From: a virus
Direction: 5' to 3' (one strand)
Virus record (IMG/VR): IMGVR_UViG_3300037517_000960
Location: 1-22,251 of that record
Length of the DNA stretch: 22,251 nucleotides
Shown: in pieces, positions 7,089-19,900 of the stretch
Position numbering within the stretch: position 1 is the first letter of the stretch
Layout: each line of letters begins with the position of its first letter
Notes under the pieces: model-generated
What the model was told of the DNA's origin: nothing
Databases searched by the model: none
Seen by the model: the letters and a program-made list of their open reading frames with translations, nothing else
Translations under genes and position numbers: made by a program

Positions 7089-7262
7089 ATGACCTACATC
7101 CTCCACACCGGCCCGTGGCACATCGGGCCATTCCCGACCCACATCGCGGCGCAGCACTTCGCTGAGAGCCACGGCATCGACGACTACCGCATGATTCCGC
7201 TGGATGATCCAGCCGAAGCGCCGGGCCGGATCGCGCGGTTCAATACTCCCAGCGCACCCTAG
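7089..7262 (+). CDS. Hypothetical protein (57 aa) convergent with the endolysin
   Basis: Not recognised. Starting at ATG 7089 after a C-rich leader, the product reads TYILHTGPWHIGPFPTHIAA, then QHFAESHGIDDYRMIPLDDP. It is rich in His and Pro with a probable strand then helix. Its last 23 bases overlap the 3' end of the endolysin gene on the opposite strand, leaving no room for a terminator between the convergent units. Confidence 0.62.
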   Translation: MTYILHTGPWHIGPFPTHIAAQHFAESHGIDDYRMIPLDDPAEAPGRIARFNTPSAP

Positions 7263-8310
7263 GCCGGCCCTTGCGGATGCCGAGATGTGTAAATCCCTTG
7301 GCAGCGCCGTAGCCGACGCTATAGGGCCAGTTCTTATCGCACCAGTCCTGCACCGCGTAGATGTCCGCGCCATGCACGAAGAAGTCAACCGCACCCACAC
7401 CATGCGCGTCGTAGAGGTGCTCGCTGCCTGACGCCCCGCCCACCTGCCGGTTGACTGCTGGCGGCCTGAATCCAGATGTGATCACGATCGGCTTACCACC
7501 GAACGCACCCCGCACCCGCTCAAGGAACGCCGCCAGCTCGGCGGCTGTGTCAATCTGATGCTGGTGGTCGAACCTGCGCGCCTCCTGATCGAGCGCAAAC
7601 TCGCCCAGCCGTATGTGCGGCGTGATGTGCGCTGAGAACGGGCTGGCGGGCGTCAGCTTGGCCGGTTGCCGGTCCTGCTCAGGCAGGCCCCACAGGCGAC
7701 CCTCGGCCTCTCTGCGGCGCTTCAGGCCGGCCTCGACGTTGGTGCCAGGGTTGCGGTACAGCAGCAACGCTTCGGGCACCTGCGGCCACTCCTTGCCCTT
7801 CAGCCGCTTGCTGATGGTCTCGAACCCGGCGGCGCCGTAGAAGCCCGAGCCAAGGTTGTAGGCGAACGAGATCAGCGCGCACTTCTGTTGATCGCTCATC
7901 GCCACCCAGAACGGCACGGTCGCGCGCAGCTTCTCAGCAATGCGGTCTACCTCGCTGCGCAGCAGCATGTCGGCCTCGACCCGGTTGATCTTGTCACCCT
8001 TCTGCACCTTGCGGCCGTCGCTGTATCTGGTGGTGCCATAGCCAATGGTCCACGGGTCGCCGCCGCTCAGTGGGTCGGGGTAAGCATCAAGGTGACAGCC
8101 CTCGAACTGCTGGATCAACTTGAGCGCTGCGCCCAGGTCAGCCTGTTTGCCGTCTTGGCTCCATGTCTGAAACCACGCCTGATCTCTATTAAACAGATCC
8201 GGCGCAACCTTTAACAGCTCCGCTTCCAATTCAGAAATGGCCGCCATCTGATGCGGCAGCCCTTTCCAGTAACGGAACAGGTCGCTTGGTTTGATCGGTG
8301 CTTTAGCCAC
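7240..8310 (-). CDS. Endolysin: GH24 lysozyme plus M15 peptidase
   Basis: Degrades host peptidoglycan at lysis. In 356 residues, an N-terminal helical segment (about 1-60) precedes a T4-lysozyme-type GH24 domain (about 60-210) with E70 in QQFEG, D79 in YPDP and T88 in WTIGYG, the Glu-Asp-Thr triad with an insertion between Asp and Thr. A second domain (about 225-356) looks like a Peptidase_M15 metallo-endopeptidase: GFRPPAVN, then H298 in SEH, D309 in GAVDF and H342 in FTHLG as candidate zinc ligands; the His-Asp loop is a little longer than the usual SxHxxGxAxD. It would therefore cut both glycan and peptide. The start is GTG 8310, overlapping the preceding small membrane gene by 8 nt. No signal peptide is visible, so a holin is needed. 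Confidence 0.92.
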   Translation of the reverse strand: MAKAPIKPSDLFRYWKGLPHQMAAISELEAELLKVAPDLFNRDQAWFQTWSQDGKQADLGAALKLIQQFEGCHLDAYPDPLSGGDPWTIGYGTTRYSDGRKVQKGDKINRVEADMLLRSEVDRIAEKLRATVPFWVAMSDQQKCALISFAYNLGSGFYGAAGFETISKRLKGKEWPQVPEALLLYRNPGTNVEAGLKRRREAEGRLWGLPEQDRQPAKLTPASPFSAHITPHIRLGEFALDQEARRFDHQHQIDTAAELAAFLERVRGAFGGKPIVITSGFRPPAVNRQVGGASGSEHLYDAHGVGAVDFFVHGADIYAVQDWCDKNWPYSVGYGAAKGFTHLGIRKGRPRVRWEY

Positions 8311-10515: not shown

Positions 10516-11952
10516 TCAAATGATTGTCCAGGTGGCGCCGGCGGGCACAGTCACAGCATAGGTGGCTGCAACTTCAACAGGGCCAGCAGACAGTCCATTG
10601 TATCCGGTTGACAAAGTGTAATTAGCGTTGATGGCCTGCTGGCTTTCAAGAATTGGCGTGCCAATCGCTGGTGTGTACCAGCCTAATGTACCGCTGCCGT
10701 TGGTGCTGAGCAGCTGTCCGTTGGTGCCATCAGCAGCAGGCAGCGTCCATGTGACATTGGCCGCGATCGTGGTCGCCCCTTGAAATGCGACCCAGTTGCT
10801 GCTGTCTGCATCGGCAAAGCGCAGATCTGACTGGGCATTCAGGGTGATGTCGCCAGTCATGGCGCCGCCAGACTTGGGCAGCGCAGCATTAGCTAGGTCA
10901 TAGGCGCTCTTGACCGCGTTGGGCGTGGCTGCCTTGGTGGTGCTGGTGCTACTGGTTGAGTCCTCAAGCTGAACGGCGCCCTTCTGACTGGTGGTGCCGT
11001 CCTGAATACTGATGACAGGCGTTGTGCCACCAGTGCTAGCCAACGGGCTGCTGGCAGTGACGGCTGTGACCGTTCCACCAGTGCCAGCGATCGAGATGCT
11101 GCCGTTGCCGTTTGTGATCGTGATGCCACTGCCAGCTGTCAGCGTGGCCTTTGTCAGCGTGTTGCCAGTGCTGTTGCCGATCAGCAGTTGACCGTCGGTG
11201 TAGCTGGTCTGGCCGGTGCCGCCATAAGCCACACCGATCGTGGTGCCCTGCCATGTGCCGGTGCCGATGGTGCCGACGCTGGTCAGGCTGCTGCTAACGA
11301 CAGCGCTGCCAAGGCTGGTAGCATCCAGCACCTTGGTGCCAGCAATGCGGTATTCCTTAGTGCTGGCGATGTTGACGTGTTCACTGAACGTCCACGCATC
11401 AGTGGCGTCAACCCAGTTGATTGTCTTGTCGGTGCTGCCCTTAAGCGTGATACCGCCACCGTCGGCGGTCACGTCCGTCGGCGTTGTGACCTGACCGATG
11501 ACGACGTTCTTGTCTTCAACGATCAGATGCTGCGTGTCGATCGTGGTCGTTGTGCCGTTGACCGTCAGGTCACCCTGAATCGTGACGCCACTGTCGAACG
11601 TCGCCGCGCCAATTACGTCGAGCGTGCCGGGCACATCAATGTTGCTGGCCCACTCAACGCCTGTGCCGGCCGCATCGGTTTGCAGCAGCTGCCGCGGTGT
11701 GCCATCAGCCAGCTTGCTGACGGCGATCTCGGCGTTGCTGGCGATGTCAGCATTGACCAGCGGATACGCGCTGATCGACAGTCCGGGGATGTACCCAAGG
11801 CTGGCCCATGCCGTTGTGCCGTCGCCAACCTTCCACTTGTTGGTGTTCGACTCAATGCCAATCTCGCCAGCCAGCAGCGTCGGATTGACCGATATCCAGT
11901 TGGCGGCGGTGTCGCGGCGTTGCTTTTGAAACGCCAGCAGCGTTGTAGTCAT
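10516..11952 (-). CDS. Tail fibre protein (478 aa)
   Basis: Host-recognition fibre. Order of segments: an N-terminal virion-attachment domain (about 20-55: NPTLLAGEIGIESNTNKWKV, then GDGTTAW), a repeat-like region with LTVNGTTTTIDTQHLIVEDK and DVTADGGGITLKGSTDKTIN, a YGGTGQTSYTDGQLLIGNS turn, and a phage-fibre repeat (SQKGAVQLEDSTSSTS, then TPNAVKSAYDLA) before GGAMTGDI. The TADGGGITLKG/WVDATDAW segments are ones I know from cyanophage structural proteins. It starts at ATG 11952 after a perfect AGGAGGT, overlapping the previous stop by three bases. A fibre is confident; host specificity is not readable. Confidence 0.88.
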   Translation of the reverse strand: MTTTLLAFQKQRRDTAANWISVNPTLLAGEIGIESNTNKWKVGDGTTAWASLGYIPGLSISAYPLVNADIASNAEIAVSKLADGTPRQLLQTDAAGTGVEWASNIDVPGTLDVIGAATFDSGVTIQGDLTVNGTTTTIDTQHLIVEDKNVVIGQVTTPTDVTADGGGITLKGSTDKTINWVDATDAWTFSEHVNIASTKEYRIAGTKVLDATSLGSAVVSSSLTSVGTIGTGTWQGTTIGVAYGGTGQTSYTDGQLLIGNSTGNTLTKATLTAGSGITITNGNGSISIAGTGGTVTAVTASSPLASTGGTTPVISIQDGTTSQKGAVQLEDSTSSTSTTKAATPNAVKSAYDLANAALPKSGGAMTGDITLNAQSDLRFADADSSNWVAFQGATTIAANVTWTLPAADGTNGQLLSTNGSGTLGWYTPAIGTPILESQQAINANYTLSTGYNGLSAGPVEVAATYAVTVPAGATWTII

Positions 11953-12455
11953 GCGGCACCTCCTGCCTCGATGATAAAGCCGCGTGCTGGTGATGCCGCA
12001 GCAGCCAAGCCATCCACAATGTAAAGCCGTTCTGGTGTCGTGGGATTTGCCACGCTGCCGTCGAACACAAGATCGCCAAGGTCGACCGGCTCGGTGATCA
12101 GCTCAACATCGACGTTGTATCGGCCGCATGACGCGTGACTGACGAGCATCGGTGATGCATAGCGCCAGGTGTAATCGCTGATCAATGCGACTGGCGGCGT
12201 GGCCAGCCCAGACCATACCTCAGCCGAAAGCCAGAACCGATCGAAACTGCCCTGCACAGCGATGTAATGCTGCGTCAGCAGGGTCAGGTCGGCCTCTTGC
12301 AGATTCGTGAACGTCAAGTTCAGCGCTTGCCCGATGCGGCGGTTGCCGCGCCTGAAGCTGGCATCAACGCCGCTGAGTGACTGCATCCGCGACTGTGGCA
12401 GATCACCCGGCACATAAACGCGTGTCGATGGCACCAGTGACGGGAACAGGTTCAT
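11949..12455 (-). CDS. Tail-region protein, paralogue A (168 aa)
   Basis: 168 residues with no named domain that I recognise. The first 120 residues align with the next upstream gene: FPSLVPSTR, GDLPQSR, SGVDASFRRGNRR, ALNLTFTNL and VWSGLATPPVALISDYTWRY correspond segment by segment. A C-terminal extension (RLYIVDGLAAAASPARGF) ends in a Gly-rich tail whose DNA also carries the fibre Shine-Dalgarno. Position between the tail hub and the fibre suggests a tail-tip adaptor. The start ATG 12455 overlaps the paralogue's stop by four bases. Confidence 0.72.
   Translation of the reverse strand: MNLFPSLVPSTRVYVPGDLPQSRMQSLSGVDASFRRGNRRIGQALNLTFTNLQEADLTLLTQHYIAVQGSFDRFWLSAEVWSGLATPPVALISDYTWRYASPMLVSHASCGRYNVDVELITEPVDLGDLVFDGSVANPTTPERLYIVDGLAAAASPARGFIIEAGGAA
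11958..11964 (-). promoter_or_regulatory. Perfect Shine-Dalgarno of the tail fibre gene
   Basis: The minus strand reads AGGAGGT at 11964-11958, five bases before ATG 11952. It is the strongest ribosome-binding site seen in the window. It lies within the last codons of the upstream paralogue, where it encodes Gly-Gly. It fixes the fibre start and predicts high translation of the fibre. Confidence 0.7.
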
Positions 12456-12826
12456 GGTGCCAACAGCACGGACACGAGCTGCACGCCGACATTGTAGGAA
12501 AGGGGCGCCGCCTGCTCAACGTCCACCTGGTCGGCGTAGCGCCATTCATATTCAACGCCGATTGGCGGTGTGGTGAATCCTGACCAGATAATCGCCGGCA
12601 GATCAAAGGACAGCATGGTGCCCTCTTGGCCGATGTAGTGATTCAGGATCTGATACAGCTGCGACTCGCTCAGGTAAAGCCATCGAAGGTTGAGCACCTG
12701 CGCCACGCGATCAGTGCCCTGCAGGAACCTGACGCCCACGCCGCTGACGCCATCATGATTCAGCTGCGGATAATCACCGAAGCTGAGCTGACGCGTTGCC
12801 GGTTCAATGGCGGGGAACGTGGTCAT
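12452..12826 (-). CDS. Tail-region protein, paralogue B (124 aa)
   Basis: A shorter relative of the downstream gene, with matching segments FPAIEPATR, GDYPQLN, SGVGVRFLQGTDRVAQVLNL, QILNHYIGQEG and WSGFTTPPIGVEYEWRYAD. It ends after NVGVQLVSVLLAP, without the C-terminal extension of paralogue A. The pair arose by tandem duplication and divergence and probably forms a heteromeric or stacked layer near the tail hub. Four-base overlaps on both sides keep it in the late operon. Confidence 0.72.
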   Translation of the reverse strand: MTTFPAIEPATRQLSFGDYPQLNHDGVSGVGVRFLQGTDRVAQVLNLRWLYLSESQLYQILNHYIGQEGTMLSFDLPAIIWSGFTTPPIGVEYEWRYADQVDVEQAAPLSYNVGVQLVSVLLAP

Positions 12827-15168: not shown

Positions 15169-15665
15169 CGCCCCGTGAACCTACCGATCAAATCCGACGA
15201 AACCTTACGGCTCGGGATCTGCGCTTTAAGTTTGTCGATCGCAGGGTTGACCGTCCATGAGACTGTCGTATCGTTCAGGCTTGCCGATTGAATGCTGCCG
15301 ATGTAACGGCTGACGATCTGCGCGCTTGTGGCATCGAAAGAATCCTCGCCTGGATCTTGGATCACCAGCGACGCGATCACGAGCGTGTCTCCATTGATGG
15401 CCGCATCAGTCAGATCGACCACATCACCCACCGCTGCCAGCACGATCGACAGGTCGTTGACCGATCCGGCATCAGCCGATCCGAACCCGCTCACATCAAA
15501 CGCCAGATAGCCGTAGGTGCCAGCCACGTCGGTGTCGATCGTCAATGGCTGCGCTACTTGATAGAAGTTTTGCCATTGCCGCGTCGGTGCGCGCAGGCCG
15601 CCAGACATCACGCTGGCCCGGTCGGCGTAATACTCAAGGAAGCACATGATGTCGTAGTAACCCAT
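15165..15665 (-). CDS. Minor tail protein (166 aa)
   Basis: 166 residues directly after the tape measure, in the position of lambda gpM/gpL. The N-terminus (GYYDIMCFLEYYADRASVMS) is helical and the rest is beta-rich with repeated short strands: VNDLSIVLAAVGDVVDLTDA, GDTLVIASLVIQDPGEDSFD and QIVSRYIGSIQSASLNDTTV. It ends with a basic stretch (AQIPSRKVSSDLIGRFTGR). It likely forms a distal-tail ring connecting the tube to the hub. The start overlaps the tape measure stop by one base. Confidence 0.68.
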   Translation of the reverse strand: MGYYDIMCFLEYYADRASVMSGGLRAPTRQWQNFYQVAQPLTIDTDVAGTYGYLAFDVSGFGSADAGSVNDLSIVLAAVGDVVDLTDAAINGDTLVIASLVIQDPGEDSFDATSAQIVSRYIGSIQSASLNDTTVSWTVNPAIDKLKAQIPSRKVSSDLIGRFTGR

Positions 15666-18028
15666 CAGGCCAGCCCCACCGCTCGACGTGTGCCCATGTC
15701 ATTGCGCAGCATGGCAAGCGTCTGATTCACACCGGCCTGCACGGCGCGGCTCATGTCCTGCGTGGTGACGTAATTGGTGCCATTCATCTGTGTGACCGGG
15801 CCAGTTTGGATGCTGACATTCGCGCTGGTAGGCATCACTACGCCGCCCTCTGCAAACCGTGGGATAGCAGAAGCGCCACGGCGACCAGCCATCCAGTTGG
15901 CGGCAAAGCCTGCTGCTTTGGACTGCGGCACGATGTACTCAGGCTCGCCGCCTTCGCCAACGAGCGCCATGGTCGGGCCGTTCACCACGCCGCCATCAGC
16001 GAATCGCGGCAGGCTCACGCCGGGGAAGAATGGAATCTGCGGCAGCTGCAGCACGGCCAGCGCGCGATTGGCTGCGGCGATCAGCTGGTTGATGCCGCCG
16101 ATGGCGCCGTTGATTGCGTTCTGAACGCCACCGATGACGCCGTTCACGATGCCGCGAATGGCGCCAGCAGCTGCCTCGAATGGTCGGGACAATATGCCGC
16201 CAAGCGTTTGGAACAGCTGGCCGATGCCCTGGGCCATAGCGCTCAGGTTGCGGGTGATCGGGTCAATGAAGACCGACTTAAAGCCCTGCGCCGCAGCCTG
16301 CAGCACGTAGCCGATGCCCTTGAAGACATCGGCAATCTTGTCGCGGAAGGCGTAGATCGCCACGCCTGCAGCTACCAGTAGCGCAACCCACCCAACCGGG
16401 CCGGTGAACACAGCCGCAAGGATTGGCAGCAGGCCGCTAAGCGCGCCGCCGATGGCGGTGATTGTGGGAATGACCGCGCCAAGGTAGCCCGCAATCGTGG
16501 CGAAAATTGTTCCACCTGCAAACACACCGGCTAGGGCACCGCCGATCGAGATGATGGCGCTGATGGCGGGTGCCAACAACACGAACGCTGCAGTCAGCGC
16601 GCCAACCGCCAAGATGATCCCTTGAAGCGGAGCCGGCAGTCCGCTGAACCATTGCGCAAGACCCGCGATGCCTTGAGCCAGTTGTGTGATGAATGGCAGC
16701 AGAGCGGTGATCGCTTGGTTGAAGGGACCGGCCACCGATCGGGCGATGCCATTCAGCGCATCGTTGAACTTGTCAGCCGCCTGCGCCATCTCGGTGTCGA
16801 TCGTTGAGGCGTATTGCCCGAGAGCACCGCGACCCTGGTTGAGCATGGGGATCAGGTTGGCGCCTGATCTGCCAAACAGCTCTTGAGCAATTGATGACTT
16901 CAACGCGCCATCCTCCATCTTCGAGAACTTGTCTGCGATGTCAAGCATTAACTCGTCAACGGGTCGCATTTTATTGCTTGAATCAACCGCTGAAATGCCG
17001 AGCTTGGCGAGGGCATTACCAACGCCCTTTGTGCCGTTCTCTATTGATTCTGCAGCTTTTTTGTAGTTAGCTTGAACAGCCGCAAGCTGCTGTGCTGTTG
17101 CCGCCTCAATCACTTTAGATTGAGATTCCGAATTCTTTTTAATGATTGACTCTTCTGCTCTGCGCCTGTCCTCTAATGCATCTTCGTCAATTCTACGCGC
17201 ATCCCGAAGCTGCCGATCTCGCAATTTTTGAGCGCTTGCAAATCTTTTTTGTATCATGTTTAACTCGTCTTCTTCTTGATTCCTTAAGCTGTCAAGCCTT
17301 TGGCTTTTCTCTTGATCTGACAAAGACTGATCATTTTTAATTGAATCGCGAATCAAATCGTATCGACTGTTGACTTGTCGCTGTACCTCGCGCAAAGATT
17401 GATCAGCAACCTCACGCTCTCTGTCAGCTTGATCGTCATAGCTGTCATTGAGCAAAGTTTGCTCCCCTCTGTATCGCTTGTTAAGCTCGCGCATTCTTGA
17501 ATCAGTTTCATCTTGCAATGCGCTAAGACGTTCTCTACCCTGATCTTTGATTAAATCGGTTTGCTCGCGCTCTCCTCTTCTAATCGCTTCCAGCGCATCA
17601 TCACTTGATGTTTTGACTTTGCTTGCGTATTCGTCTGCGCCAGAGCTTGCGGCGACCAACCCCTTGCTGAACCTGCCCATGGCCTTGGCAACTTCATCAA
17701 TCGAAGTGCCGCTGTCATCGGCAGCCCCTTGAAAACGGCTCAAGGATTCAACACTAACGCCGGTCCGTTTGCTGAGATCATTCAGGTTGTCAGCTGCGTC
17801 AATGGCGCGCTTCCCAAATGCAGCAATAGCTGCAATGCCCGCCGCAGGGACAATGGCGCCAAGAGCGCCGGCCAATCCGCCAGCCACGCCCTTGATCCGC
17901 CCTAGCGCACCGCCAGTCTCCTTGGCTTGCCGTTCAGTATTGCCAAGCGCTTTGTTCAGGCTGTTGATCTCGCCCAGCCCGTCAACGCTGGCCCTGACCC
18001 TAACGGCCGCATCCATGTTCAGCGCCAT
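15665..18028 (-). CDS. Tape measure protein (787 aa) with inserted coiled-coil block
   Basis: Sets tail length and is ejected ahead of the DNA. Residues 1-135 carry the usual start of tape measures (AAVRVRASVDGLGEINSLNK, then LSKRTGVSVESLSRFQ). Residues about 138-338 are an almost pure Arg/Glu/Asp/Gln coiled coil. The canonical text resumes at LAKLGISAVDSSNKMRPVDE and ELFGRSGANLIPML. Hydrophobic helices follow at about 460-570 (LQGIILAVGALTAAFVLLAP, GPVGWVALLVAAGVAIYAF), then two GGVV repeats near the end. AGGGGG-type Shine-Dalgarno lies eight bases before ATG 18028. If about 1.5 angstrom per residue holds, the tail would be about 115-120 nm. Confidence 0.93.
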   Translation of the reverse strand: MALNMDAAVRVRASVDGLGEINSLNKALGNTERQAKETGGALGRIKGVAGGLAGALGAIVPAAGIAAIAAFGKRAIDAADNLNDLSKRTGVSVESLSRFQGAADDSGTSIDEVAKAMGRFSKGLVAASSGADEYASKVKTSSDDALEAIRRGEREQTDLIKDQGRERLSALQDETDSRMRELNKRYRGEQTLLNDSYDDQADREREVADQSLREVQRQVNSRYDLIRDSIKNDQSLSDQEKSQRLDSLRNQEEDELNMIQKRFASAQKLRDRQLRDARRIDEDALEDRRRAEESIIKKNSESQSKVIEAATAQQLAAVQANYKKAAESIENGTKGVGNALAKLGISAVDSSNKMRPVDELMLDIADKFSKMEDGALKSSIAQELFGRSGANLIPMLNQGRGALGQYASTIDTEMAQAADKFNDALNGIARSVAGPFNQAITALLPFITQLAQGIAGLAQWFSGLPAPLQGIILAVGALTAAFVLLAPAISAIISIGGALAGVFAGGTIFATIAGYLGAVIPTITAIGGALSGLLPILAAVFTGPVGWVALLVAAGVAIYAFRDKIADVFKGIGYVLQAAAQGFKSVFIDPITRNLSAMAQGIGQLFQTLGGILSRPFEAAAGAIRGIVNGVIGGVQNAINGAIGGINQLIAAANRALAVLQLPQIPFFPGVSLPRFADGGVVNGPTMALVGEGGEPEYIVPQSKAAGFAANWMAGRRGASAIPRFAEGGVVMPTSANVSIQTGPVTQMNGTNYVTTQDMSRAVQAGVNQTLAMLRNDMGTRRAVGLA

Positions 18029-18352
18029 TTATTTGGCCCCCTTCTGCGCAGCCATAAGCACCTCGCCTTCAATCACCTGGATGTCCTCCAGCATGGCGGC
18101 GGGGTCCTCTGCTCCATACAGTCTAAACGCTAGATCCAGCGCAAGGTAGTCAAGCCCGATCACCCCAGTCGGCCCGCTGCGCCACTGAGTCTGACACCTC
18201 AGGAACATTTGCACAGCAGGCCATGCCTCCGGTTCAACCTCAAAGTGCTCCGGCTCTGGCGGCAGGTTGAGATCAATGCCGAAGGCTGCAGCGTCGTCAG
18301 CGGTGTTGTCAATGACGCCACCCTTGATCCAGTACCGCGCAGCCTCGGTCAG
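18029..18352 (-). CDS. Tail assembly chaperone T region, read by -1 frameshift (DUF1799-like)
   Basis: The open frame from 18352 to the stop at 18029 has no ATG, GTG or TTG until a GTG at 18214, which is inside the conserved part. The translated region (KLTEAARYWIKGGVIDNTAD, then EPEAWPAVQMFLRCQTQWRS and GPTGVIGLDYLALDLAFRLY) matches DUF1799, the T portion of phage tail chaperones. It lies in the -1 frame relative to gene G, and A AAA AAC occurs at the junction. Frameshifted G-T would be about 233 residues (126 + 107). It chaperones the tape measure and is absent from the virion. The independent GTG 18214 (61 aa) would lack the start of the domain. Confidence 0.82.
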   Translation of the reverse strand: MTEAARYWIKGGVIDNTADDAAAFGIDLNLPPEPEHFEVEPEAWPAVQMFLRCQTQWRSGPTGVIGLDYLALDLAFRLYGAEDPAAMLEDIQVIEGEVLMAAQKGAK

Positions 18353-18729
18353 TTTTTTGTTTTCTTCCCTTGGATGCTTTCGAAATAGGACTGAATTATC
18401 GAGCCCGCTAGACCGGGGATGTTTAGCAACTGGGCTTTGCTGGTGGCGCTGAATGGCACCTCCTCGCCCTCGTCATCAACAACGCCGGCCCAGCCCGCCA
18501 GCACTTCGTCAGCAATCGAGATGTCCGAAACGTCTCCTTCAAACGGTCGACCAAACTCAGTCGCGCGTAGGCGTGCCTGTACCTCAGTTTGGATCTCGTT
18601 GATCCTTGACTGCGGCAGCCGCTTGAACTCCGCATCAAAGGTCTGCTTCTCGTATTTGCCGCCATCGGTCGGCACCTTGAAGGGCACCGGCCATGAGTAG
18701 GTGGCGGATTGCTTGAGGACGAATGCCAT
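18349..18729 (-). CDS. Tail assembly chaperone G (126 aa)
   Basis: Lambda gpG-type tail assembly chaperone. The strand-rich N-terminal half (AFVLKQSATYSWPVPFKVPT, then QTFDAEFKRLPQSRINEIQT) and the helical part (DEVLAGWAGVVDDEGEEVPF, KAQLLNIPGLAGSIIQSYFE) match phage tail chaperones with the D-E-V-L-x-G-W/VVDxxGxxVPF signature. Gene order tail tube, G, G-T, tape measure is diagnostic. It ends QGKKTKN, where codons ACA AAA AAC precede TGA, the frameshift site. The start ATG 18729 lies eight bases after the tail tube stop; no clear Shine-Dalgarno. Confidence 0.88.
   Translation of the reverse strand: MAFVLKQSATYSWPVPFKVPTDGGKYEKQTFDAEFKRLPQSRINEIQTEVQARLRATEFGRPFEGDVSDISIADEVLAGWAGVVDDEGEEVPFSATSKAQLLNIPGLAGSIIQSYFESIQGKKTKN
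18352..18358 (-). other. Slippery heptamer A AAA AAC for -1 programmed frameshift
   Basis: On the minus strand the G-frame codons ACA AAA AAC TGA contain the heptamer A AAA AAC in the right phase (X XXY YYZ), immediately before the TGA of gene G at 18351-18349. Slipping back one base gives AAA AAA CTG ACC, continuous with the DUF1799-like frame. This replaces the GGGAAAG of lambda. I did not fold the downstream RNA. Confidence 0.82.
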
Positions 18730-18736
18730 GCAGGGA

Positions 18737-19900
18737 TCAGGTGAAGACCAGGATCATCTCATCATTGCCGGTGCTGCCCGGAACCGCAACCACTGGGATC
18801 GACAGCATGTGGATGCCGTCCTGATCTTCGTAGCTCACATCACCGATGTCGACCGTCGAACTTGTCAGTGTGACTATGTTGCCGGCAGTCTGGCCATGCT
18901 TGAGAGTCAGGTTGCCGAGCGTCGAATCAGACAGGGCAGCCGTGAAGTAATCCTTGCTGGCGATCGTAGGCGCCTCGAGCACGACGGTGCCGGTGACGGC
19001 GCGGTTTGTGATCAGCACTTCCTTTGAGCAACCGACCAACTCGCGATAGACAACCTCGTTGCCCATGTCCATCTCGACCGACTGCAAACAGCCGGCGTAG
19101 CTCAGCAGCTGGAAGTTGGTCGTGTTGCCGTTCTTGAAGATGACCGGCACCGCTTGATTGGTATAGGTCGCAGTAGGAGCGGCAGTGTCGGTCGGGGCAT
19201 TGTAGATGCCCGTCATCGTGAAATCAAGCGTCGGAATTTCGCCAACGGCGCCATTGATTGTGAAGGTACCGCGGCAGCCGGTGACCTTATGCAGAACACC
19301 GTCGATGTTGTAGTAGATGCTGACACTGCTAAACGTGTCGCTCACCGGCTTGTAAGCCACGTTCGCGGCGATGCTGTAGACGCTGGTGTTATCAGGCGTG
19401 AATGTAGCGGTGGTCTTTTGAACGGTTGCGACCTTGGTGCTGCCGACGTAATCAGTGATGATGCCGCTCGAGCCGCTGCCGGTACCGCTGGTGATCGAGA
19501 TCACCATGCCGTTGTAGATGTCGTTTGTTGCACTTGCGCCAGCAGCCAACGTGATGCTGCCAGCCGATCCGGTCTGCGCAGTGCCGGTGATGGCCGAGCC
19601 GGTGGTCGTCGCGCTGAATCCACAGGCCTGGATCACCCGGCCAAATGCGGGCGCCGTACCGGCGGTGCCGCTGCCTGCCATCTCAACCTGAAAGGTTACC
19701 TCGACGCGGGTGTTGGCCAGCAGCTGCTGTGATGCGCCAAGGTATGGGCGGATCAGCTCACGATCAACGGTGTCGCTTTGAAGGGGCGTGATGCTGAGAT
19801 CACGCACCAGCACCGCATCAGTGCCGTCTGGGCTGCTGTCGGTTCCGTAGGGGCTTTCGGTTTTTGCCAGAATCAGGCGTTTGCGGCTTAGGAGCGGCAT
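18737..19900 (-). CDS. Major tail tube protein (387 aa)
   Basis: Forms the hexameric rings of the tail tube. The start PLLSRKRLILAKTESPYGTD, then VLVRDLSITPLQSDTVDREL is characteristic of siphovirus tail tube proteins (KRxILAKxExxYGTD...L). An interior Ser/Thr/Gly-rich region (GITGTAQTG-like, residues about 110-165) looks like an inserted surface domain, and DFTMTGIYNAPTDTAAPT and LITNRAVTGTVVLEAPTIAS belong to the conserved beta fold. ATG 19900 is supported by GAGG at 19913-19910, nine bases upstream, although this lies inside the upstream gene. 387 residues is in the range of tubes with an extra domain. Confidence 0.88.
   Translation of the reverse strand: MPLLSRKRLILAKTESPYGTDSSPDGTDAVLVRDLSITPLQSDTVDRELIRPYLGASQQLLANTRVEVTFQVEMAGSGTAGTAPAFGRVIQACGFSATTTGSAITGTAQTGSAGSITLAAGASATNDIYNGMVISITSGTGSGSSGIITDYVGSTKVATVQKTTATFTPDNTSVYSIAANVAYKPVSDTFSSVSIYYNIDGVLHKVTGCRGTFTINGAVGEIPTLDFTMTGIYNAPTDTAAPTATYTNQAVPVIFKNGNTTNFQLLSYAGCLQSVEMDMGNEVVYRELVGCSKEVLITNRAVTGTVVLEAPTIASKDYFTAALSDSTLGNLTLKHGQTAGNIVTLTSSTVDIGDVSYEDQDGIHMLSIPVVAVPGSTGNDEMILVFT

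What the first reader, a model, noticed from the sequence alone, without database searches (positions are those of the whole stretch)
18029..18729. Tail chaperone G/G-T with an A AAA AAC frameshift site directly at the stop
Gene G ends ACA AAA AAC TGA on the minus strand. The X XXY YYZ heptamer A AAA AAC (18352-18358) is in the correct phase, and a -1 slip continues into a frame with no ATG/GTG/TTG for about 45 codons that encodes a DUF1799-like T domain. The heptamer is of the classic viral type, not the GGGAAAG of lambda, and the stop follows it at once, which may itself tune efficiency.
Basis: partly seen in the sequence, partly recalled or inferred. Interest (0 to 1): 0.75.

Follow-up and report, generated by a model that had tools for sequence, protein, structure and literature searches.

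The report
Phage tail chaperone ribosomal frameshift site
This is an ordinary but unusually well-conserved ribosomal frameshift signal (slippery A AAA AAC, a stop codon touching it, then in most relatives an RNA hairpin) by which a Synechococcus-type phage should make a short and a rare long version of its tail-building helper protein.

Summary
Gene G (18729-18349, minus strand) ends A AAA AAC|TGA in the right phase. The -1 frame stays open for 107 codons to 18029, with no ATG/GTG/TTG until codon 46, and encodes a DUF1799 domain (E 8e-16). Relatives settle the interpretation. All 204 scored junctions from DUF1799 phages have an in-phase AAAAAAC (194) or GGGAAAC (10); in 196 it touches TGA or TAA. 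On a tree of 96 representatives the preceding codon changes at least 24 times, its third base only twice, both times with the switch to GGGAAAC. The stop swaps identity about 18 times but moves once, by one codon. The window itself has it (z about -2.8); the enterobacterial clade lacks it. So this is a programmed -1 frameshift cassette of a known kind: lambda G/GT is the archetype, and AAAAAAC touching the stop is already published for Acinetobacter phage Loki. That the stop tunes efficiency is plausible but untested. No expression data exist for this phage.

The parts
18349..18729 (-). gene G, tail assembly chaperone (Phage_TAC_4, PF08748), 126 aa
18352..18358 (-). slippery heptamer A_AAA_AAC, in phase with G
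   Evidence: in-phase heptamer kept in 204 of 204 scored junctions
18349..18351 (-). UGA stop of G, touching the heptamer
   Evidence: stop touches the heptamer in 196 of 204 junctions
18029..18352 (-). T part in the -1 frame (107 codons plus stop) of the G-T fusion
   Evidence: no usual start codon for 45 codons; homology among relatives begins at the first residue
18056..18250 (-). stretch of T that matches DUF1799 (PF08809), T residues 35-99
   Evidence: E 8.4e-16, 58.4 bits against a cut-off of 26
18339..18346 (-). 5' arm GAGGCUGC of the predicted stem, 5 nt after the heptamer
18282..18289 (-). 3' arm GCAGCCUU of the predicted stem
15665..18028 (-). tape measure protein gene, starts directly after the T stop
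   Evidence: PHROG matches
18737..19900 (-). major tail tube protein gene
   Evidence: PF18906 6e-18

Best explanation
The region is a programmed -1 ribosomal frameshift that makes two proteins from one gene. Most ribosomes read G to AAA AAC and terminate at once on the adjacent UGA, giving gpG (126 aa). A minority, with tRNA-Lys on AAA and tRNA-Asn on AAC, slip back one base onto AAA AAA and continue with CUG ACC GAG, giving gpG-T (about 233 aa; G followed by the 107-residue T/DUF1799 part). A stem that starts 5 nt after the heptamer, inside the T coding sequence, is the likely stimulator. By analogy with lambda, many gpG and few gpG-T coat the tape measure protein, and the T part recruits tail tube subunits. 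Shown here: the anatomy, selection on the heptamer, the start-less T frame, and excess RNA structure at the usual spacing. Inferred: that the shift happens, its rate (a few per cent by analogy), the stimulator role of the stem, and the chaperone function.
For: Phase and frames. In-phase heptamer in 204 of 204 scored junctions. At least 24 changes of the preceding codon but only two of its third base, both together with AAAAAAC to GGGAAAC; A is 13.7% of third positions in G. T homology starts at the slip, no conserved start, and in 30 junctions the T frame is open for three codons or fewer before the slip. Stems starting 4-10 nt after the heptamer in 62/96 against 22.3 +/- 4.3 with codon shuffles; window z -2.8, p 0.005; compensatory pair changes in relatives. 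Cultured cyanophages S-CBS1, S-CBS3 and S-LBS1 share the site. DUF1799 and TAC families between tail tube and tape measure genes.
Against: No expression, proteomic or reporter data. AAC is a weak second codon on E. coli ribosomes (PMC5009743, PMC4066793). The stem is not in excess in the phiES15-like clade (3/24, 4.2 expected) or the GGGAAAC clade (2/7, 1.4 expected). One DUF1799 phage, Shelby, has no heptamer in the overlap. The AlphaFold model of G finds no PDB fold match.
Confidence: 0.93

Rival explanations
1. T is a separate gene with its own, possibly non-canonical, start, and the heptamer is a coincidence of Lys-Asn codons at the end of G.
For: Databases annotate T alone from an internal start (S-CBS1 gp14, phiES15 gp41).
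Against: No ATG/GTG/TTG for 45 codons in the window; the first start in relatives lies anywhere from codon 1 to 72. T homology begins before it. The heptamer is under selection at the nucleotide level.
Confidence: 0.03
2. The shift happens by transcriptional slippage on the run of six A, not by ribosomes.
For: A run of six A is present in most junctions.
Against: Ten junctions have GGGAAAC and no long A run; six A is short for polymerase slippage (own knowledge); the phase requirement and the downstream stem at ribosomal spacing fit ribosomes.
Confidence: 0.02
3. Sequencing or assembly error, or a decayed gene: G and T were one frame.
For: Two adjacent frames of one protein can arise from a single-base error.
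Against: The same split at the same place in 204 distinct junctions, including cultured phages sequenced independently.
Confidence: 0.005
4. The frameshift is real, but the touching stop has no role of its own; it is kept by common descent and because T must begin directly after the slip.
For: T starts with an invariant Leu whose codon uses the first two bases of the stop; the stop sits one codon later in the L036 group; all junctions share descent.
Against: A stop is kept through about 18 changes of identity at that codon, and unrelated-looking chaperones of Loki and phiCbK also have AAAAAAC touching the stop.
Confidence: 0.6

Closest known systems
Lambda G/GT tail assembly chaperone frameshift (review PMC5009743; Xu, Hendrix and Duda 2004 cited there, not read)
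   Same: Gene order tail tube, G, T in the -1 frame, tape measure; short G and rare fusion from one heptamer near the end of G
   Different: GGGAAAG with the stop 15 nt later in lambda; here AAAAAAC with the stop at 0 nt and a DUF1799 T domain
Acinetobacter phage Loki gp12/gp13 (PMC5313236)
   Same: AAAAAAC immediately followed by the stop of the chaperone gene, plus an 8-bp hairpin 8 nt on
   Different: T sequence not recognisably DUF1799 by eye (not tested by profile); no Pfam match for its G
Caulobacter phages phiCbK (AAAAAAC) and Colossus (GGGAAAC) (PMC3556154)
   Same: The same two heptamers; phiCbK has AAAAAAC|TAA at 0 nt
   Different: Long, unrelated-looking T; giant phages
[quoted passage not shown]
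   Same: Slippery site with a stop as the next codon and a downstream RNA structure
   Different: Eukaryotic RNA viruses, polymerase fusions; no homology

Membership tests
Frameshifted tail assembly chaperone (G/GT type) | gene between tail tube and tape measure genes | tested here: met
Frameshifted tail assembly chaperone (G/GT type) | in-phase slippery heptamer near the end of G, conserved in relatives | tested here: met
Frameshifted tail assembly chaperone (G/GT type) | downstream ORF in the -1 frame without its own conserved start | tested here: met
Frameshifted tail assembly chaperone (G/GT type) | fusion protein made at low ratio and needed for tail assembly | not testable with these tools
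   needs protein or genetic data
PF08809 DUF1799 | profile match above Pfam cut-off | tested here: met
   58.4 bits against 26
PF08748 Phage_TAC_4 | profile match above Pfam cut-off | tested here: inconclusive
   window G 20.0 bits against 21.1, full-length match; 23 of 30 aligned G proteins match, best 7.9e-31
Canonical -1 frameshift cassette | stimulatory structure 5-9 nt after the heptamer | tested here: met
   predicted stem 5 nt after the heptamer, z -2.8 by codon shuffles in one chosen window; weaker in a 100-nt fold (z -1.1); role untested

The most novel reading that the evidence does not exclude
In DUF1799 tail chaperones, and perhaps independently in Loki- and phiCbK-type ones, the heptamer, touching stop and hairpin form one conserved module in which the stop is an active part: a bacterial counterpart of the retroviral/luteoviral arrangement, where release-factor competition at the next codon helps set the G to G-T ratio at a mammalian-type AAC site.
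Probability: 0.28. Interest if true: 0.55.

Novelty: new member of a known kind. Interest (0 to 1): 0.33.

Why it matters
It gives a heavily sampled natural series (204 junctions; two heptamers; stop at 0 or 3 nt; long stem, short stem or no stem) of one frameshift cassette, well suited to reporter tests of how a touching stop and a hairpin set -1 frameshifting on bacterial ribosomes. It also shows that the T part is mis-annotated in public cyanophage genomes. In itself it extends a mechanism long known from phage lambda.

Tried and rejected
Upstream Shine-Dalgarno stimulator: no enrichment. Separate start for T: rejected. Transcriptional slippage: unlikely, GGGAAAC junctions lack an A run. 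Rfam: one chance snoRNA hit, E 0.44. Stop tetranucleotide context: nothing clear; TAG is absent at 0 nt (0 of 95 representatives, 16 of 95 at the T stop), but T codon 2 must then begin with G, so coding explains it as well. PDB fold search with the G model: no match at E <= 0.001. PDB sequence search: none for G; for T only ribosomal protein L20 at E 0.002 and weaker over a C-terminal helical stretch, taken as chance. DNA-level match to a cultured phage: none. First T profile A1 too divergent for a locus search. My first codon-shuffle windows started 8 nt in and cut the outer pairs of the window's stem, giving z near -0.8 for a near-identical locus; the window covering the whole stem gives -2.8, so the value depends on the window chosen. 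Stem class A was selected by its pairing, so those counts are circular; codon shuffles and alignment A3 (with unpaired relatives added) carry the weight.

Full report
What is there. On the minus strand the window carries a tail tube gene (19900-18737), gene G (18729-18349), a -1 frame T (to 18029) and the tape measure gene (18028-15665). G ends ACA AAA AAC TGA; the heptamer A_AAA_AAC (18358-18352) is in phase with G, and the -1 frame continues CTG ACC GAG GCT for 107 codons. That frame is open from just after 18475, 40 codons before the slip, and has no ATG, GTG or TTG until GTG 18214, 46 codons after it. T is DUF1799 (PF08809, 8.4e-16); G is Phage_TAC_4, weakly in the window and clearly in its relatives. 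The window is an IMG/VR virus record; its exonuclease and one tail protein match Synechococcus siphoviruses (S-CBS1, S-LBS1, S-CBS3) best, at low identity and without DNA-level similarity to any cultured phage in the collection. The host is therefore probably Synechococcus-like, but that is inference.

Relatives. Scans of viral contigs, one scan of bacterial genomes and named phage records gave 331 loci with T. After removing duplicates, 204 distinct junctions could be scored; two were left out by hand, one with a mis-assigned G (L228) and Klebsiella phage Shelby (L166), which has no XXXYYYZ in the overlap. All 204 carry an in-phase heptamer: 194 AAAAAAC and 10 GGGAAAC. In 196 the stop, TGA or TAA, follows directly; in 8 (the L036 group) the end is AAAAAAC TTC TAG, one codon later. 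The codon before AAA is GAA, CGA, GCA, ACA, AGA, CTA, GTA or CAA: seven amino acids, third base always A, although A makes up 13.7% of third positions in G. On a tree of 96 representatives this codon changes at least 24 times, its third base twice (both with GGGAAAC), the stop at least 18 times, and the distance to the stop once. Many loci are close kin, so the tree counts matter more than the raw numbers. No other ORF of 100 codons or more in these loci ends in such a motif (0 of 363).

The T frame. Homology among T proteins begins at the first residue after the slip (L1 invariant, A4 invariant or nearly so), and the AlphaFold model starts a helix at residue 2. The first start codon downstream lies anywhere from codon 1 to 72, 12 of 204 junctions have one upstream, and in 30 the frame is open for three codons or fewer before the slip. 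In those the shift has to happen at or within a few codons of the heptamer.

With protein and codon content held fixed, RNA just after the heptamer folds better than shuffled versions (mean z -1.45, -1.19 and -1.08 for 40, 60 and 80 nt; about 0 at +158 and +218; 68 representatives). Stems of at least 7 pairs start 4-10 nt after the heptamer in 62 of 96 against 22.3 +/- 4.3 expected, with peaks at 5 and 8 nt and no excess beyond 10 nt. By clade: window group 25/28 (8.2 expected), AAE/AAD group 27/32 (7.4), deep single lineages 5/5 (1.1), GGGAAAC group 2/7 (1.4), enterobacterial phiES15-like group 3/24 (4.2). The stem is thus a property of some clades, the window's among them, and not of the whole family. 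In the window, GAGGCUGC (18346-18339) pairs with GCAGCCUU (18289-18282); the 78-nt stretch folds at -33.5 kcal/mol against -24.1 +/- 3.4 for codon shuffles (z -2.8, p 0.005). That value depends on the stretch chosen: a 100-nt fold against dinucleotide shuffles is unremarkable (z -1.1), and 8/8 arm pairing alone arises in 22% of codon shuffles. In 30 relatives the stem is 95% paired, with UA to CG and GC to CG double changes. In other clades, including S-CBS1, the same 5' arm instead pairs with a nearer 3' arm, and S-LBS1 has a 13-bp hairpin of different sequence at the same 5-nt spacing. That different sequences give a stem at one spacing is the best argument that the stem is selected; its role as stimulator is inferred.

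How it most likely works. Tandem slippage of tRNA-Lys and tRNA-Asn from AAA AAC to AAA AAA, helped by the stem, makes gpG-T of about 233 aa; the other ribosomes stop at once. The ratio is not measured. A_AAA_AAC is among the best sites on mammalian ribosomes but much weaker than A_AAA_AAG in E. coli (PMC5009743, PMC4066793), which would suit a product needed in small amount (30:1 in lambda, PMC5009743). A stop as the next codon lowered frameshifting at the HIV-1 site by about 70%, and raising RF2 abolished it in a bacterial test reported there (PMC4373837); so if the stop tunes anything here, it most likely acts as a brake. Adjacency could equally be inheritance plus the need for T to start directly after the slip, which I rate as somewhat more likely.

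Known or new. AAAAAAC touching the stop of a tail chaperone gene was reported for Acinetobacter phage Loki, with the same motif in IME_AB3 (PMC5313236); AAAAAAC and GGGAAAC for phiCbK and Colossus (PMC3556154) and for haloviruses (PMC5009743); a stop as the next codon for RSV and BYDV (PMC4373837). In the paper library I found none naming DUF1799 together with frameshifting and none describing a stem in these chaperones, but most subscription papers, Xu et al. 2004 included, are not held. Mean heptamer-to-stop distances of 26 nt (SEA-PHAGES) and 36 nt (Xu set) (PMC10885494) and 15 nt in lambda make distance 0 across a family unusual, but not unprecedented. Verdict: real, correctly read, a new member of a known kind, with a conserved cassette as the useful addition.

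Noticed in passing
L162:2501-2833, L165:1441-1776, L338:3904-4245 (S-CBS1, S-CBS3, S-LBS1): Public annotations of these cyanophages miss or truncate T (started at an internal codon, split, or called 'tail length tape measure protein'); PHROGs 569 and 680, which match G and T, carry the tape measure label too.
   Followed up: partly
L036, L044, L046, L048 (junctions): AAAAAAC TTC TAG: the only group in which the stop has moved, by one codon.
   Followed up: partly
L166:1340-1380 (Klebsiella phage Shelby): A DUF1799 chaperone annotated as a frameshift product but with no XXXYYYZ heptamer in the overlap (GCA AAA GTT TAA); possibly a single-tRNA A_AAA slip.
   Followed up: no
L071, L072, L076 (GGGAAAC clade): Instead of a stem at 5-8 nt there is a 12-bp stem GCCAAGGGCGGC/GCCGCCUUUGGC starting over 20 nt after the heptamer.
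   Followed up: no
window 11949-12455 and 12452-12826, minus strand: Two adjacent genes that both match PHROG 15525 (minor tail protein): a tandem pair of paralogues.
   Followed up: no
window 7240-8310, minus strand: By eye, a lysozyme-like N-terminal half and a peptidase-M15-like C-terminal half in one 356-aa protein; not tested.
   Followed up: no
L052/L115 (IMGVR_UViG_3300049043_000351), gene G: G match is one base longer than in relatives and the frame is disrupted near its start, probably an assembly error.
   Followed up: no
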